Assembly: GCA_013286835.1 (NCBI GenBank)
Contig: JABDEZ010000005.1
Coordinates: 1 to 60,525 of the forward strand
DNA: 60,525 nt
Reading direction: 5' to 3'
From: Bacteroidota bacterium
Lineage (GTDB): Bacteria > Bacteroidota > Bacteroidia > Chitinophagales > Chitinophagaceae
Below, in pieces: positions 55,056 through 60,525 of the stretch (positions are counted from its first letter, which is position 1; each line of letters opens with the position of its first letter). The notes beneath the pieces are model-generated. The model made no database searches, was not told the DNA's origin, and saw only the letters and a list, made by a program, of their open reading frames with translations. A program made the translations under genes and the position numbers.

Positions 55056-56171
55056 TTAATGTAAACGATATTTTAATTGTACCTGCATGTAATTACGATC
55101 TATATAGTTATTACCAGCGGAAAGTAAATTATTAGTGCCTATGCGGTAACTTACCCCACCTTTAAGACGTGTGGTTACCGCATAGTCTGTTTTTAATAAA
55201 AGCCCTATATCTGTCATCGGTGCCACCTTTTCTTTGTCGTTATAGATAACAGTAGTCTCGTGGTCCTCCAGCAGACGTTGCAGATCTGCACCAGCCCCTA
55301 CAATTATTTTTTTAGAAACATTATAACCTGCTACGGGCGAAAATTGTAAGTAATTAAGCGGCGTTGTATTGGTTGTGTTGGTTACGTTGTGCACCGCGTT
55401 TGTGGGACCATAGTTTGACGTACCATTGCTCATTGCTGTGGCGCTGCTATTGTTTATATACCCCATTGTAACCTCAATACTCATTTTATTACTTATCCTT
55501 TTGTCGGCAACTGCATTCAGGGCGTAACCAGCATTTAGTGTGCCATAGTTAACGCCACCACCTACACTAATATTTATATTCTTCTTTACAACCGCAACTT
55601 CTTCCTTTATTGATGGCCCGGGCAGCGGTAATGCAACAGATTTTTGCTGAGGAGTTGCTTTTTTATCAACCTGTGCAAATTTTTCAGCCAAGGTTGTTTG
55701 TGCTACAGCGCTGTTGCCACTATCGTGTGATGTTGCAGGGGCTGCAGCCATGTTGCTTGCTGTATTTTTGGTGATACCAGCATTGACCAGTAATTGGTTG
55801 TTGTTTGTTTTTTTAGTTGTTACGGTAAAGGTTTTACTTCTGTTTGCAGATGTAATAGCAATAGTGTTTTGTGCTTTAATTGGTGTTGATGGGGTAACAG
55901 GGGCTGACGTTGCTATTTTGCTGGCAGTGTGTTGGTGAATACTTACAGTAGTTATGATTTCTTTCTTAGACAATAAAAGACTGATGCCTACCATGCAGAC
56001 AAGCAACGATGCTGCTATGCCAGATACTTTATAGACAAACAGTATGGTACGTTTCTTGTGTCTTGCATCAGCAAGCTGCACGGTTAGTTTATCCCAGTCA
56101 CCGGGATCGTATGTAAAAGTGGTCTGTTTCAGTTTTTCAGCCACAAGCCTGTCAAACTCATTGTTGCTCAT
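55056..56171 (-). CDS. Putative anti-sigma factor fused to an outer membrane beta-barrel-like domain
   Basis: 371 residues. A short cytosolic part ('NEFDRLVAEKLKQTTFTYDPGDWDKLTVQL', 1-40) precedes one membrane helix ('VSGIAASLLVCMVGISLLLS', about 48-67), a long Thr/Ala/Asn-rich linker to about 190, and then strands of barrel type ('NINISVGGGVNYGTLNAGYALNAVADKR', 'TPLNYLQFSPVAGYNVSKKIIVGAGADL', 'TDYAVTTRLKGGVSYRIGTNNLL', 'NYMQVQLKYRLH'). It starts within the ECF sigma gene (14-bp overlap), which argues for a role as its anti-sigma partner. If the prediction is right, the protein spans both membranes. The barrel could act as sensor. Confidence 0.8.
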   Translation of the reverse strand: MSNNEFDRLVAEKLKQTTFTYDPGDWDKLTVQLADARHKKRTILFVYKVSGIAASLLVCMVGISLLLSKKEIITTVSIHQHTASKIATSAPVTPSTPIKAQNTIAITSANRSKTFTVTTKKTNNNQLLVNAGITKNTASNMAAAPATSHDSGNSAVAQTTLAEKFAQVDKKATPQQKSVALPLPGPSIKEEVAVVKKNINISVGGGVNYGTLNAGYALNAVADKRISNKMSIEVTMGYINNSSATAMSNGTSNYGPTNAVHNVTNTTNTTPLNYLQFSPVAGYNVSKKIIVGAGADLQRLLEDHETTVIYNDKEKVAPMTDIGLLLKTDYAVTTRLKGGVSYRIGTNNLLSAGNNYIDRNYMQVQLKYRLH

Positions 56172-56724
56172 AAAGCTTGTTTTTTGTCACTATCAATTGT
56201 TGCAATGTCTTGCGTGCATGATGCACATGCCAGTGCGATGTGCCGGTGCTCATGTTCAGCAATGCCGCTATTTCATTGTGGGTATAGTCTTCAAATACAA
56301 ACAGGTTGAATACTGTTCGTGTCACAGGGGGTAATGACTGCAGCAGCGCTATCAGATCATTCGTATTTATGTTGCTTATGGCATCGTTATAAACAGCATG
56401 ATTGGTATTATCCTCTATTACCTCTTTATGTATGGTCTGATTACTTTTTTTAAATTCACTGCTTTTCAGATATTCAAGACAAGTATTTACCATTATTTTC
56501 CGCATCCACCCTTCAAACGATCCTTCATTCCTAAAGCTGCCTATAGACATGAAGATCCTCACAAAACCGTCATTCATCAATTGCTTTGCATTCTGTATAT
56601 CCTTAGCATAGCGCACACAGACAGTAAGGAATATGCTGTAGTATTTTTTATACAGATACTCCTCATATAACCTGTCTTTTCTCAGGCAGCCTTTTATTAC
56701 TTCCTGCTCGGCATACTCAGCCAT
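56158..56724 (-). CDS. ECF RNA polymerase sigma factor
   Basis: 188 residues with sigma-70 region 2 ('YEEYLYKKYYSIFLTVCVRYAKDIQNAKQLMNDGFVRIFMSIGSF...FEGWMRKIMVNTCLEYL') and region 4 ('LLQSLPPVTRTVFNLFVFEDYTHNEIAALLNMSTGTSHWHVHHARKTLQQ'), and no region 3, as in ECF sigmas. It is followed by the anti-sigma/barrel gene with a 14-bp overlap and lies 47 bp downstream of the first lipoprotein gene with no terminator, so it may be autoregulated through the shared motif ahead of that gene. It would redirect RNA polymerase to the genes with the ACCCAAG motif. Confidence 0.93.
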   Translation of the reverse strand: MAEYAEQEVIKGCLRKDRLYEEYLYKKYYSIFLTVCVRYAKDIQNAKQLMNDGFVRIFMSIGSFRNEGSFEGWMRKIMVNTCLEYLKSSEFKKSNQTIHKEVIEDNTNHAVYNDAISNINTNDLIALLQSLPPVTRTVFNLFVFEDYTHNEIAALLNMSTGTSHWHVHHARKTLQQLIVTKNKLYEQQ

Positions 56725-56771
56725 GGTTTTATACTTCCTGTCATTGTACTACTAAATTTAAGACGATGTTT

Positions 56772-57239
56772 TTATAACTGATCCAACACATGCCCTGCCT
56801 GCCATATATATGTTCTTAATTCAGCCGGTATCTGCGATGTATCTGCATTAACATCCCACTTTGTTCTTACGTCATTAGCTGTAGCCCAGAGCCGTATTAC
56901 GGCCCCATCTGCACAACCTGGGCACCCTATCAAGCTGTCGCTAGGGTGGTTGAGCAGGTATGCCGGAAAGTTGTCAATGAGTTGCTTTGCAATAACATAG
57001 AGACTATCAGGCTCCTTAGCCAAGGCAAAGGGATTAGGGGTCATGTAATAAGACTGGTCTGCGAACAGCATATTATTTTGCAATAAATAGAATTGTCCGC
57101 ATACCATTGGTGTCACGCACATTGGGTTGTACCTGCCAAATATCAGGCTATCAGGTTTGGGTACAGGGGCTGTTGTTTCTTTTTTGCAGGCCGATAATGC
57201 CATGATAGCCACCAGGCCAACCATTATTAATGGTTTCAT
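56772..57239 (-). CDS. Lipoprotein, paralogue 1 of 3
   Basis: 155 residues, lipoprotein signal with lipobox Cys18 ('IMALSACKK'). The family core seen in all three paralogues is 'IDNFPAYLLNHP', 'IGCPGC' and a last part 'KWDVNADTSQIPAELRTYIWQ'. Four Cys in the mature part ('CVTPMVC', 'CPGC') could form disulphides or bind metal; paralogues 2 and 3 keep few of them. Function unknown. It is followed directly by the sigma factor gene and preceded by the conserved motif at 57264-57295. Confidence 0.82.
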   Translation of the reverse strand: MKPLIMVGLVAIMALSACKKETTAPVPKPDSLIFGRYNPMCVTPMVCGQFYLLQNNMLFADQSYYMTPNPFALAKEPDSLYVIAKQLIDNFPAYLLNHPSDSLIGCPGCADGAVIRLWATANDVRTKWDVNADTSQIPAELRTYIWQAGHVLDQL

Positions 57240-57263
57240 AACTTTTGATGAATTACTTGTTTA

Positions 57264-57295
57264 TATAGAAGGATATAATGACCGGAACCTTGGGT
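57264..57295 (-). promoter_or_regulatory. Putative ECF promoter, lipoprotein 1
   Basis: On the minus strand: ACCCAAGGTT, 13 bp, CCTTCTATA, ending 24 bp before the start codon at 57239. Two other lipoprotein genes have the same bipartite motif. It has no match to TAnnTTTG. Confidence 0.6.
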
Positions 57296-57331
57296 AAATG
57301 AGAAAAAAAATACGCTAACGGTTTTGCGCCA

Positions 57332-57880
57332 TCAATGCATATGAGATAAAGAATCCCTCACCTGCTGCATTTGCGCTGTATATATCCTTATCTCTGCAGG
57401 GATCTTTGTGGTATCGATGTTTATATTCCACGTAGTAGTATCATTCTTATTCACGGTGGCTATATAAAGATATAATGCAGGCACATTTGGGGTAGCGCCA
57501 AAAATAGTATTAGGATGTGCCAGCAGGTATTGCGAGAAACCGGTGACCAGGGGCCGAACTAGTGTGTATGCTTTATCAGGCATTAGTATCGAAGAATCGA
57601 ACAAATTATTTGCCCACGTGTTCAGCATACTATTCAGCATCACAGAGTCTGTGAAATACCTGGTCTGCTTATATACCCGTGTTGTATCAAAAAAATAGAA
57701 GGTATAGGATGGTATATTGTTAGACATGTGCGGCCGGTCATATTCACCAAATACAAACTGGTTACTGACCAAAACAGGGGCAGGCATGCCATCATTACCG
57801 AAAGAATTTATTGTTGCTGTTTTCTTGGTGCAAGATGTAAGTGTGAGTGCTAATAAGCAGATAGTGGCCAGGTTTTTCAT
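57332..57880 (-). CDS. Lipoprotein, paralogue 2 of 3
   Basis: 182 residues from ATG 57880 (MKNLATICLLALTLTSC, lipobox Cys17); the track's start at 58039 lies upstream of the motif and adds 53 unlikely residues. Same ending as its paralogues: 'FSQYLLAHPNTIFGA' and 'TTWNINIDTTKIPAEIRIYTAQ'. The N-terminal part has diverged. It is anchored to a membrane by lipid. It has its own motif at 57908-57939, so it can be transcribed independently. Confidence 0.82.
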   Translation of the reverse strand: MKNLATICLLALTLTSCTKKTATINSFGNDGMPAPVLVSNQFVFGEYDRPHMSNNIPSYTFYFFDTTRVYKQTRYFTDSVMLNSMLNTWANNLFDSSILMPDKAYTLVRPLVTGFSQYLLAHPNTIFGATPNVPALYLYIATVNKNDTTTWNINIDTTKIPAEIRIYTAQMQQVRDSLSHMH

Positions 57881-57907
57881 AACTAAGATTTGTTTTCTGT
57901 TCTTTAG

Positions 57908-57939
57908 TATAGAAGGAGGCAACACATATAATCTTGGGT
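57908..57939 (-). promoter_or_regulatory. Putative ECF promoter, lipoprotein 2
   Basis: On the minus strand: ACCCAAGATT, 13 bp, CCTTCTATA, with identical spacing to lipoprotein 1. It ends 27 bp before the start codon at 57880. Confidence 0.6.
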
Positions 57940-58048
57940 CAGGCGAACAATATTTTGATAAGGATATACCATTTGTGCGTGAATGAACAAACCTGCTGGC
58001 GTAAGCGATAGTGCTTGTACCAGCAGGTTTGTAAATCAAAACTCTTGT

Positions 58049-58507
58049 TTATTTAAAGCCTAGGGTATGGTCTACCTGCCATACATACTGCTTTAATTCC
58101 TTCGGTAGCTGGCTGGTATCCATGTCTATATTCCATTTCAACGTGTCCCCATTTACCAACGCTTCCAGGTGTATGTACACGCAGACATTAGCGCCTATTG
58201 TAGTATCTGGAACATGGCTGAGCAAGTACGATGGAAAGTTGTCCTGCAGCAGTTTTGCTTTTGCATATACACTATCAGGCAGCGGCACCGTATAGTAGTT
58301 TATAGGTGGTAGCAAATAAATACTGTCCATGAATACATGGTCATTGTGTACTGCAAAATAAACACCTTGTGGCATTGGGGTCAATGCACAGGGAAATGCC
58401 CAGCCATACAGGAACCATTGTGTATTAGACACAGGTTGTGTGTTGTCTTTTTTACAAGAGGTCGCCATTGTAATGGTTAGCGAACAAATTATTATTACCT
58501 TCTTCAT
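58049..58507 (-). CDS. Lipoprotein, paralogue 3 of 3
   Basis: 152 residues with lipobox Cys18 ('TITMATSCKK'). Shared family core: 'LQDNFPSYLLSHVPDTTIGANVC' in outline and 'LKWNIDMDTSQLPKELKQYVWQ'. Closest in layout to paralogue 1. It is preceded by the conserved motif at 58530-58563. Function unknown; the tandem family next to a sigma/anti-sigma pair suggests that these are the regulon's output at the cell envelope. Confidence 0.82.
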   Translation of the reverse strand: MKKVIIICSLTITMATSCKKDNTQPVSNTQWFLYGWAFPCALTPMPQGVYFAVHNDHVFMDSIYLLPPINYYTVPLPDSVYAKAKLLQDNFPSYLLSHVPDTTIGANVCVYIHLEALVNGDTLKWNIDMDTSQLPKELKQYVWQVDHTLGFK

Positions 58508-58529
58508 GGTCTGTTAAGGTTGTGCCTTA

Positions 58530-58563
58530 TATAGAAGAGGATATAGTGGTGCCAAACTTGGGT
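58530..58563 (-). promoter_or_regulatory. Putative ECF promoter, lipoprotein 3
   Basis: On the minus strand: ACCCAAGTTT, 13 bp, CCTCTTCTATA (two bases longer than the other two). It ends 22 bp before the start codon at 58507. Confidence 0.55.
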
Positions 58564-58598: not shown

Positions 58599-59399
58599 TT
58601 ATTGTTTTTCATCGCTTTCTTCTCCTGTATCCTTGTCCACATGCCTGTATTCCGATCCTGGAACTGTCTCTTCCTTCGCATGCTTTCGTCTATGTTTAGC
58701 ATGGAACGAAAAATTGTCAGAAATGCCAAAGTTTACCTGCTGGCCAAAAGTGAGTTGTACACTTTTTGAGTTTCTTGTTTCTGAATAGTCGCTTTTTGAG
58801 TGCATATTTACGTAGTCAACACCACCGAAACTAAAATTAAGTGCAAGGCCTTTATATATTTTAGCCCCTACTGCCGGGAAAATTTGTACCTGGAAACTGC
58901 CGGTGGACGTAGGGTTGGATCCGTAGTAATAACTATTAACTGGCATGTAGTTACTTAAGAGTGGGTAAAAGTATTCGGGTTGGTTATGCAACTCGCTGGA
59001 TAGGTAGGACATATTTGCTTGCCCATACAAAAAGAATATTTGACCCAGGTCTTGTGTATAACGGAAGAATCCTCCTGCAGACCAATTGATCGTTATGCTG
59101 TTGCCAGAAGCATATTCATACCCGGAAATAGGGCCTGCGTTAAATGGTACATAGCCATTCGTTGCATCCTCAATATGGCTATAGCTAACCTGTACACCTG
59201 CGGTAATGTGTTTATTAAACTGGTACCCTATGCCTGGGGCCACACTCCAGCTTGTATTTGTGCCTTGTGGGTATTGGTAAGGGTCGGTATTGGAATTTTG
59301 CGATAGGCCGGCAGTTCCATATACCAACCAGGTATGTGGCTGTGCAGATATTGCAGTATAATAAAACAGGCTTGCAGCTAACAGAATTGATTTTTTCAT
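58599..59399 (-). CDS. Outer membrane beta-barrel protein
   Basis: 266 residues from ATG 59399 (MKKSILLAASLFYYTAISAQ), with a good signal peptide; the track's 59480 start overlaps the gene before. Strands such as 'WSVAPGIGYQFNKHITAGVQVSYSHIED', 'ITINWSAGGFFRYTQDLGQIFFLYGQANMSYL', 'SFQVQIFPAVGAKIYKGLALNFSFGGVDY' and 'SKSVQLTFGQQVNFGISDNFSFH' make a small barrel. After the last aromatic strand there is an unusual charged tail of ~35 residues ('KHRRKHAKEETVPGSEYRHVDKDTGEE'), which would be periplasmic. It starts 10 bp after the T9SS gene, so they form one operon. Confidence 0.8.
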   Translation of the reverse strand: MKKSILLAASLFYYTAISAQPHTWLVYGTAGLSQNSNTDPYQYPQGTNTSWSVAPGIGYQFNKHITAGVQVSYSHIEDATNGYVPFNAGPISGYEYASGNSITINWSAGGFFRYTQDLGQIFFLYGQANMSYLSSELHNQPEYFYPLLSNYMPVNSYYYGSNPTSTGSFQVQIFPAVGAKIYKGLALNFSFGGVDYVNMHSKSDYSETRNSKSVQLTFGQQVNFGISDNFSFHAKHRRKHAKEETVPGSEYRHVDKDTGEESDEKQ

Positions 59400-59409
59400 A
59401 GAATGTGTT

Positions 59410-60525
59410 TTATTGTTTAATAACCTTTTGGCTGTGCAGTATTTTACCGTTATCGTCTGTAATAATAAGTATATAGGCACCCGGGCTGAACCTGTTTATA
59501 TCAATTGTCTGTACGGTTTTGCTATCTGCACTTTGCGTTACCAACAATTGCCCCATTGTATTTAAAATGCGGATGGTTGTTTTACCCGCAGACGCGTCTA
59601 TACCAGATATAGAGACAATATTGTTAGCCGGATTAGGATATACAGTTATACTGCTTGCTGCAGTAACGTTGGGTACGGCAGTGGCATTATATGTTTCGTA
59701 AGTATAGCGTGCAACATAATAAGGGACGGTGGGGAACGTAGTACCATTACCATAATATCCCTTTGTGATAACAGGGTTGTTGTAGTTATCGTATTGCACT
59801 ATATACTTAATAGGTGTTTGGTTGACGGTACTTCCTGTATCAACAAAACCATAGACAGAATCTAGAAGCCCCATGGCCGATACGTGAAACTGCAATGTAT
59901 TTACGTAGTTAACACCATTTTCAAAAGCGGTATATTTTTCGAAAGTATAAAAACCCACTCCACCGGTATAGCCAAAAGAGTCTATAGAAGCAGTGGACCA
60001 CTGGTTATTACTAAAATCAATGTAATCCTCTTCCGAAGTTTTTAATTGATTTAATGTAGTATAGGTATTTATATACTTCCTGGAGGGAATGGTAGTTGAG
60101 TTGCTATAGTCAAATGCGTCCACCTGAGTAAGGTTACCGGAACCATCGTAAGTATAGGTATTTACAAATTGTACCGTAAGAGGGGAATTTATGTATGTTG
60201 AATCTGCGACGAGTTTGTTTTGGACATAAACAAAAATGCGCTTAGTCTGTGTGTCTGCAACACCGTTTAATACAGAAGATAATACCAGGTTAAGGATGTT
60301 GTTTTGGCCATTGTAGCTGGCAGCAGTAATAGTAGTATTACTACCCGAAATACTTATGTTGTTGGTAATGTTATCGCCATGGTAGGTTACATATTGCTGG
60401 TCTAATAATGAAATACTACTTCCATCATTATTATAATTTCGTACTGTGTCAGCAAATACGTTGCACGGCTGGGGGGCATATACGCCATTTATATTCCCAT
60501 ATGTGTCGTACCCATACGGATCGTA
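59410..60525 (-). CDS. T9SS type A sorting-domain protein (5' part beyond the window)
   Basis: The frame is open from the stop at 59410 to the end of the window, at least 371 residues; the GTG start in the track (60123) is internal. The N-terminal visible part is rich in Tyr, Asn, Asp and Ser ('YDPYGYDTYGNINGVY', 'YTYDGSGNLTQVDAFDYS'), a style like YD-repeat or beta-helix surface proteins. The end is a type A sorting domain: 'SSITVYPNPANNIVSISGID', 'TIRILNTMGQLLVTQ', 'FSPGAYILIITDDNGKILHSQKVIKQ'. It is probably exported by T9SS. The barrel gene follows after 10 bp. Confidence 0.85.
   Translation of the reverse strand, partial: YDPYGYDTYGNINGVYAPQPCNVFADTVRNYNNDGSSISLLDQQYVTYHGDNITNNISISGSNTTITAASYNGQNNILNLVLSSVLNGVADTQTKRIFVYVQNKLVADSTYINSPLTVQFVNTYTYDGSGNLTQVDAFDYSNSTTIPSRKYINTYTTLNQLKTSEEDYIDFSNNQWSTASIDSFGYTGGVGFYTFEKYTAFENGVNYVNTLQFHVSAMGLLDSVYGFVDTGSTVNQTPIKYIVQYDNYNNPVITKGYYGNGTTFPTVPYYVARYTYETYNATAVPNVTAASSITVYPNPANNIVSISGIDASAGKTTIRILNTMGQLLVTQSADSKTVQTIDINRFSPGAYILIITDDNGKILHSQKVIKQ

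What the first reader, a model, noticed from the sequence alone, without database searches (positions are those of the whole stretch)
56158..58563. Putative ECF regulon: three paralogous lipoproteins with an identical bipartite promoter motif
Each lipoprotein gene is preceded 22-27 bp from its start by ACCCAAGnTT, 13 bp, CC(TC)TTCTATA (third copy two bases longer). The motif is not the TAnnTTTG type seen elsewhere, and the first copy can also drive the sigma and anti-sigma genes, giving a self-amplifying loop. The lipoproteins share a DNFPxYLLxHP and WNxxxDTSQxPxEL core that I cannot assign. Together this looks like an undescribed envelope response system.
Basis: partly seen in the sequence, partly recalled or inferred. 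Interest (0 to 1): 0.72.

Follow-up and report, generated by a model that had tools for sequence, protein, structure and literature searches.

The report
Self-driven envelope sigma factor lipoprotein operon
A Chitinophagaceae bacterium carries a cell-envelope alarm made of an alternative sigma factor and an anti-sigma predicted to reach from the cytoplasm to the outer membrane, and a shared promoter appears to put a family of unstudied lipoproteins and the alarm itself under that sigma; the kind of alarm is known, but its promoter code, its surface-protein targets and the lipoproteins were not found described.

Summary
In detail: three ACCCAAGnTT-N14(16)-CTTCTATA copies lie 22-27 bp before three paralogous lipoprotein genes, none elsewhere in the MAG, none in shuffles. 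The reading 'ECF regulon' is well supported; 'undescribed system' is not. The gene after the sigma encodes a predicted cytosolic helical domain, one TM helix, a ~130-residue disordered tether and an 8-stranded OmpA-like barrel: the layout of Bacteroidota Dma (dual membrane-spanning) anti-sigmas. The lipoprotein-sigma-anti-sigma unit with this promoter recurs in five Chitinophagaceae genomes. A sister form, ACCCAAG-N14-CGTCTA, precedes related sigma operons and up to 12 dispersed genes per genome; 21 of 23 genomes with the motif own this anti-sigma family (P=8e-17), 41 of 43 sites have a co-directional gene downstream, and about half of these genes carry type IX secretion tails. The window's sigma clade has lost the -10 G (CTTC/CATC) and has private substitutions, mostly in sigma region 2; a second paralogue coexists in three of these genomes. 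The lipoprotein family matches no Pfam, NCBIfam or PDB family, yet also sits beside sigma/anti-sigma pairs in a second bacterial family, fused to PrcB_C. Regulation and lipoprotein function are inferred; nothing was measured.

The parts
57264..57295 (-). promoter element 1, ACCCAAGGTT-14-CTTCTATA, before lipoprotein C and the sigma/anti-sigma genes
   Evidence: conserved before the first lipoprotein of the homologous loci
57908..57939 (-). promoter element 2, ACCCAAGATT-14-CTTCTATA, before lipoprotein B
58530..58563 (-). promoter element 3, ACCCAAGTTT-16-CTTCTATA, before lipoprotein A
56772..57239 (-). lipoprotein C (155 aa, MKPLIMVGLVAIMALSAC), family without a Pfam model
   Evidence: AF2 pLDDT 83.8
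57332..57880 (-). lipoprotein B (182 aa, MKNLATICLLALTLTSC)
58049..58507 (-). lipoprotein A (152 aa, MKKVIIICSLTITMATSC)
56158..56724 (-). ECF sigma factor (188 aa; sigma-70 regions 2 and 4)
   Evidence: Pfam PF04542/PF08281 above cut-off; tree
55056..56171 (-). anti-sigma factor, Dma-type layout: cytosolic helices 4-39, TM helix 44-69, disordered ~65-195, 8-stranded barrel 199-369; overlaps the sigma gene by 14 bp
   Evidence: Pfam OMP_b-brl_2 below cut-off; AF2; Foldseek OmpA 1qjp E 8e-6
58599..59399 (-). outer-membrane beta-barrel protein (OMP_b-brl), probably co-transcribed with the T9SS-tailed gene
   Evidence: same gene order in L004
59410..60525 (-). T9SS C-terminal-sorting-domain protein, cut by the contig end; in the sister genome its promoter carries the exact motif (L004:3268-3299)

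Best explanation
This is an autoregulated Dma-type envelope sensor-response locus. The anti-sigma holds the ECF sigma at the inner membrane through its short cytosolic domain, while its C-terminal 8-stranded barrel sits in the outer membrane, joined by a disordered tether. A disturbance sensed at the outer membrane (barrel assembly, lipid/LPS state or a ligand; not known which) frees the sigma. Sigma-RNA polymerase then recognises ACCCAAGnTT (-35) and CTTCTATA (-10), raising three lipoproteins, very likely the neighbouring T9SS-secreted protein plus barrel protein, and sigma/anti-sigma itself by read-through from the lipoprotein C promoter. The lipoproteins most likely act in the envelope as effectors of the response, as NigD1 does under Dma1, possibly feeding back on the barrel. 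Shown by sequence: motif, gene order, their conservation, paralogy. Predicted by model: anti-sigma architecture. Inferred: sigma-promoter recognition, the signal, and what the lipoproteins do.
For: Motif exact and unique in the MAG. Same promoter before the first lipoprotein gene in G063, G080, G158 and G094, always with the sigma and barrel anti-sigma downstream and no motif directly before the sigma. The 15 more distant lipoprotein homologues listed show no such motif on inspection of 150 bp and no linked sigma hit. A close variant, ACCCAAG-N14-CGTCTA, stands before other sigma operons of the family and occurs, with the CTTCTA form, 58 times in 23 of 399 Chitinophagaceae genomes against 5 for the reversed control; 21 of the 23 own the anti-sigma family, 62 of 399 overall, P=8e-17. 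Directional: 41 of 43 sites have a co-directional gene within 350 bp, 1 of 43 a divergent one. Targets: 20 of 42 carry a T9SS tail against 5 of 52 other genes, P=4e-5. In G094 two divergent copies share the same -10 variant (CATC) and face the lipoprotein and a GEVED/T9SS protein. Anti-sigma model and OmpA-like barrel. In a second bacterial family, a PrcB_C-lipoprotein, an ECF sigma and an OMP-type anti-sigma are adjacent in five genomes with their own bipartite upstream element.
Against: No expression, transcript-start or binding data. The copy for lipoprotein A has a 16-bp instead of 14-bp spacer, which may weaken it. The barrel match is below Pfam's cut-off (22.7 against 27 bits) and overall AF2 pLDDT of the anti-sigma is 60, with well-scored barrel strands. 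ECF21 membership of the sigma was not tested. The phylum search found mostly N-terminal matches of the anti-sigma profile, so homology to Bacteroides Dma proteins was not shown directly. Copies with up to three mismatches are not above the reversed-pattern control, so the regulon cannot be extended by loose matching.
Confidence: 0.8

Rival explanations
1. The motif is an operator for another regulator (repressor or activator), not the promoter of this sigma.
For: No transcript data exist, so a separate regulator cannot be excluded by measurement.
Against: The element is not palindromic, is oriented toward the gene in 41 of 43 cases, has a nearly fixed 14-bp spacer and an ECF-like -10 (CGTC/CTTC), and co-occurs with the sigma/anti-sigma family.
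Confidence: 0.07
2. The promoters are served by another ECF sigma (for example the second, CGTC-type paralogue present in the same cells), so the neighbouring sigma is not the cognate one.
For: The -35 half is the same in both promoter types; overlapping ECF regulons are common; a paralogous pair is present in G063, G080 and G094.
Against: The -10 differs by sigma clade, and the clade (99/97 support) has private substitutions in sigma region 2 (E21, K47, V55, M59, R65, E67, K76). It is one evolutionary event, so the correlation is suggestive only.
Confidence: 0.1
3. The lipoproteins are mainly feedback or sensor partners of the barrel anti-sigma rather than effectors.
For: Linkage with sigma/anti-sigma in two bacterial families, copy number one to four, and placement in the same operon.
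Against: Nothing structural or biochemical supports it; homologues elsewhere lack the linked sigma.
Confidence: 0.25
4. Three similar upstream regions are simply remnants of tandem duplication, so the motif carries no functional signal.
For: The genes are tandem paralogues.
Against: The proteins are only 27-38% identical, the spacers between the half-sites are unrelated, and the same element stands before non-homologous genes (T9SS proteins) in sister genomes.
Confidence: 0.03

Closest known systems
Das/Dma systems of Bacteroides thetaiotaomicron (Das1-Dma1, Das2-Dma2)
   Same: Adjacent ECF sigma and anti-sigma; N-terminal anti-sigma domain, TM helix, long disordered tether, C-terminal barrel; a lipoprotein-type or unknown product (NigD1 under Dma1, BT_1557 in the dma2 operon) under control (PMC13088901).
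   Different: Lipoproteins here are not recognisable as NigD or DUF4943 (no Pfam match); a promoter sequence is proposed here; no link to vesiculation tested; ECF21 assignment not tested.
Phocaeicola vulgatus M0N98_03761/03760 and the similar B. fragilis EcfO pair
   Same: Sigma with a periplasm-spanning barrel-ended anti-sigma, strong induction under envelope stress, NigD orthologues up-regulated (PMC9308784).
   Different: Different order of bacteria, different lipoproteins; the LPS O-antigen response has no counterpart seen in this locus.
Flavobacterium psychrophilum SM6 promoters (CGT box; T9SS genes and one ECF/anti-sigma pair)
   Same: ECF-type -10 CGT box, T9SS connection, includes an ECF/anti-sigma operon (PMC9723704).
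   Different: There mainly T9SS machinery genes; here T9SS cargo, TonB-type receptors and lipoproteins; the window clade uses CTTC rather than CGTC.
PorXY-SigP of Porphyromonas gingivalis
   Same: An ECF sigma controls T9SS-related genes (PMC4800418).
   Different: Acts downstream of a two-component system; a different motif was suggested; no anti-sigma is mentioned in that paper.

Membership tests
ECF sigma / anti-sigma pair | sigma regions 2 and 4 only, small protein | tested here: met
   Pfam PF04542 and PF08281 above cut-off, 188 aa
ECF sigma / anti-sigma pair | anti-sigma gene adjacent and coupled | tested here: met
   14-bp overlap in the window; same order in the loci inspected
ECF sigma / anti-sigma pair | autoregulation through a sigma-specific promoter | tested here: inconclusive
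   Conserved element precedes the operon; transcription not measured
Dma (dual membrane-spanning anti-sigma) | N-terminal cytosolic domain plus one TM helix | tested here: met
   Helices 4-39 and 44-69; hydrophobic peak at residues 49-67; predicted only
Dma (dual membrane-spanning anti-sigma) | long disordered periplasmic tether | tested here: met
   Residues 65-195 pLDDT below 50, no secondary structure after residue 69
Dma (dual membrane-spanning anti-sigma) | C-terminal outer-membrane beta-barrel | tested here: met
   Eight strands 199-369; OmpA 1qjp Foldseek E 8e-6, probability 1.0; predicted only
Dma (dual membrane-spanning anti-sigma) | adjacent ECF21-group sigma | not testable with these tools
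   No ECF-group models on hand; NCBIfam best hit TIGR02985 is below its cut-off
Dma (dual membrane-spanning anti-sigma) | sequence homology to B. thetaiotaomicron Dma1/Dma2 | not tested
NigD-like lipoproteins | match to a NigD family model | tested here: not met
   No Pfam match for 25 members; no NCBIfam match above cut-off for the window's three
DUF6438 | profile match | tested here: not met
   One of 25 members at E 0.078; hhalign probability 2% against a three-sequence profile
SSI-type protease inhibitor | fold or sequence match | tested here: not met
   Foldseek probability 0.25-0.41, TM below 0.4; hhalign probability near 0

The most novel reading that the evidence does not exclude
Two paralogous Dma-type systems in one cell are kept apart by a one-base change in the -10 element (CGTC versus CTTC/CATC) matched by substitutions in sigma region 2 while the -35 stays the same; the CGTC branch runs a genome-wide T9SS/receptor surface regulon and the CTTC branch a local module of a new lipoprotein family that signals to, or protects, the outer-membrane barrel of its own anti-sigma.
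Probability: 0.3. Interest if true: 0.7.

Novelty: new variant of a known kind. Interest (0 to 1): 0.5.

Why it matters
Dma-type sensors are a recently described, Bacteroidota-only way to report outer-membrane state to RNA polymerase, and in the papers read here no promoter sequence for their sigmas was found. This locus gives a candidate promoter code that can be searched in any genome, ties such a system in Chitinophagaceae to type IX secreted and other surface proteins, provides a natural pair of paralogues for testing how ECF promoters diverge, and flags a lipoprotein family, conserved beside such pairs in two bacterial families, as a candidate effector or feedback partner.

Tried and rejected
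(1) A dispersed regulon in the window's own lineage: loose motif hits in G063, G094, G158 and G080 outside the locus lie mostly inside genes or do not exceed the reversed-pattern control, so none is claimed there. (3) DUF6438 kinship: not supported. (4) PDB relatives of the lipoprotein by sequence: none. (5) The single CTTCTA hit in G318 lies inside a gene and is treated as chance. (6) Sigma-70 consensus promoters in the region: no more than in shuffles. (7) The PNAS paper on Dma1 and the ECF reclassification paper were not held, so statements about Dma1 come from citing papers.
Full report
What is there. On the minus strand, in transcription order, the window's right end holds a T9SS-tailed protein (cut by the contig end at 60525), an OMP barrel protein (58599-59399), lipoproteins A (58049-58507), B (57332-57880) and C (56772-57239), an ECF sigma factor (56158-56724) and a barrel-ended anti-sigma (55056-56171). 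The closest named relative fetched is a Flavipsychrobacter MAG (L004), whose contig is also held as G063:C60.

The anti-sigma. Pfam gives a sub-threshold OMP_b-brl_2 match. AlphaFold2 with 27 aligned homologues predicts two short helices, one TM helix (44-69), a disordered stretch (about 65-195) and eight strands (199-369); Foldseek finds the OmpA transmembrane domain (E 8e-6, probability 1.0). This is feature by feature the layout reported for Dma proteins (PMC13088901) and for the P. vulgatus anti-sigma (PMC9308784). It is a prediction, and sequence homology to those proteins was not tested.

The locus is conserved. The lipoprotein family occurs in 26 of 399 Chitinophagaceae genomes. In five (G000, G063, G080, G158, G094) one to four copies stand before the sigma/anti-sigma pair; a sixth, divergent case is G027. 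Upstream of the first lipoprotein in each of the other four there is the same element: ACCCAAGATT-14-CTTCTTAT (G063), GCCAAAGGTT-14-CTTCTATA (G080), ACCCAAGGTT-14-CTTCTTATA (G158), ACCCAAGATT-14-CATCTGTA (G094). None stands directly before the sigma gene, consistent with co-transcription. In G063 an exact copy precedes the T9SS-tailed gene, and in G094 a second, divergent copy (ACCCAAGATT-14-CATCTATA) faces a GEVED/T9SS-tailed gene; there both copies carry the same unusual -10, as expected if one sigma reads both. The 15 more distant homologues listed show, on inspection of 150 bp, no such motif, and no linked sigma of this family was hit; some of their start sites are uncertain.

The promoter class is wider than the locus. 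Anti-sigmas of this family occur in 62 of 399 genomes. Before several of their sigma operons or the adjacent lipoprotein genes stands (A)CCCAAG(A/G)TT-14-CGTCTA or a near variant. An exact family-wide scan for ACCCAAGNTT-N14-CKTCTA finds 58 sites in 23 genomes against 5 for the reversed pattern; 21 of the 23 genomes own the anti-sigma family (P=8e-17). Of 43 sites in the regions fetched, 41 have a co-directional gene within 350 bp and 1 a divergent one, as for a promoter and not for a symmetric operator. Of 42 downstream genes, 20 end in a T9SS sorting domain, 15 carry CarboxypepD_reg domains, 9 a TonB plug; 52 other genes from regions of the same genomes gave 5 T9SS tails (P=4e-5). The background set is small and comes from loci fetched for other reasons, and related genomes are not independent, so these P values are guides only.

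Two paralogues, two -10 elements. The sigma tree puts the five lipoprotein-linked sigmas in one clade (99/97), apart from a second clade (96/99) that includes a second sigma of G063, G080 and G094. The linked clade's promoters read CTTC or CATC at the -10; the strict family-wide hits outside the window's genus read CGTC with one exception inside a gene. Eleven sigma positions are fixed in the clade and rare or absent in the 19 others; seven lie at residues 21-76, in region 2, which by general knowledge of sigma factors reads the -10, and none between residues 127 and 180, which hold the region 4 helix-turn-helix, while the -35 is unchanged. The clade is one lineage, so this is one event: suggestive, not proof. 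The second paralogue's own promoters in these genomes are weak or uncertain matches.

The lipoproteins. Family alignment A3 has an invariant lipobox Cys and near-invariant G35, P92 and W128. No Pfam, NCBIfam or PDB family covers them. The model is good (pLDDT 83.8) but no solved fold matches at E 0.001 or better. Whether they face the periplasm or the surface was not tested. In a second family of the class (five genomes of genus g111) a longer lipoprotein joins PrcB_C to this domain (PrcB_C shown for three of them) and stands before an ECF sigma and an anti-sigma with a barrel-like C-terminus (Pfam OMP_b-brl_2, sub-threshold, in one of two tested), each with ACGCAACC-14/15-CATCT (once TATCT) upstream. 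The association therefore extends beyond one bacterial family, which argues that the lipoprotein belongs functionally with the sensor.

Mechanism. Likely: an outer-membrane disturbance acts on the barrel, the tether transmits it, the sigma is released and transcribes lipoproteins, surface proteins and itself. For the Bacteroides and Phocaeicola systems experiments show that loss of the anti-sigma switches on the sigma regulon and that envelope-directed toxin exposure induces the sigma gene (PMC13088901, PMC9308784); for the present locus there is only sequence. The inducing signal, the transmission step and the work of the lipoproteins remain inference.

Verdict. A real, conserved, probably autoregulated sigma/lipoprotein module; a new variant of the Dma-type system rather than an undescribed one. 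The parts not found described in the papers read here are the promoter code, the T9SS-cargo connection in Chitinophagaceae, the -10 split between paralogues and the lipoprotein family.

Noticed in passing
L160-L199 (genera g99 and g91; G270 has 12 exact sites): ACCCAAG-N14-CGTCTA sites scattered through these genomes precede T9SS-tailed M43 peptidases, ~1100-aa CarboxypepD_reg/TonB-plug proteins and other surface proteins: a candidate surface regulon of the Dma-type sigma.
   Followed up: partly
L276-L280 (G593, G597, G565, G417, G421): Conserved operon of PrcB_C-lipoprotein, ECF sigma and anti-sigma with barrel-like C-terminus, with its own bipartite element ACGCAACC-14/15-CATCT.
   Followed up: partly
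L037:7909-7940 (+) and L037:7802-7833 (-): Two divergent promoter copies sharing a CATC -10 face a GEVED/T9SS gene and the lipoprotein gene.
   Followed up: yes
L004:6694-7371: An extra 226-aa lipoprotein of another kind, with no Pfam match, lies between the lipoproteins and the sigma in the sister genome.
   Followed up: partly
L038:5741-7063: A 440-aa secreted protein lies between the two lipoprotein genes of the G158 operon and may be T9SS cargo; its domains were not scanned.
   Followed up: no
window 59410-60525: The T9SS-tailed gene runs off the contig end, so its promoter could not be read in this MAG.
   Followed up: yes
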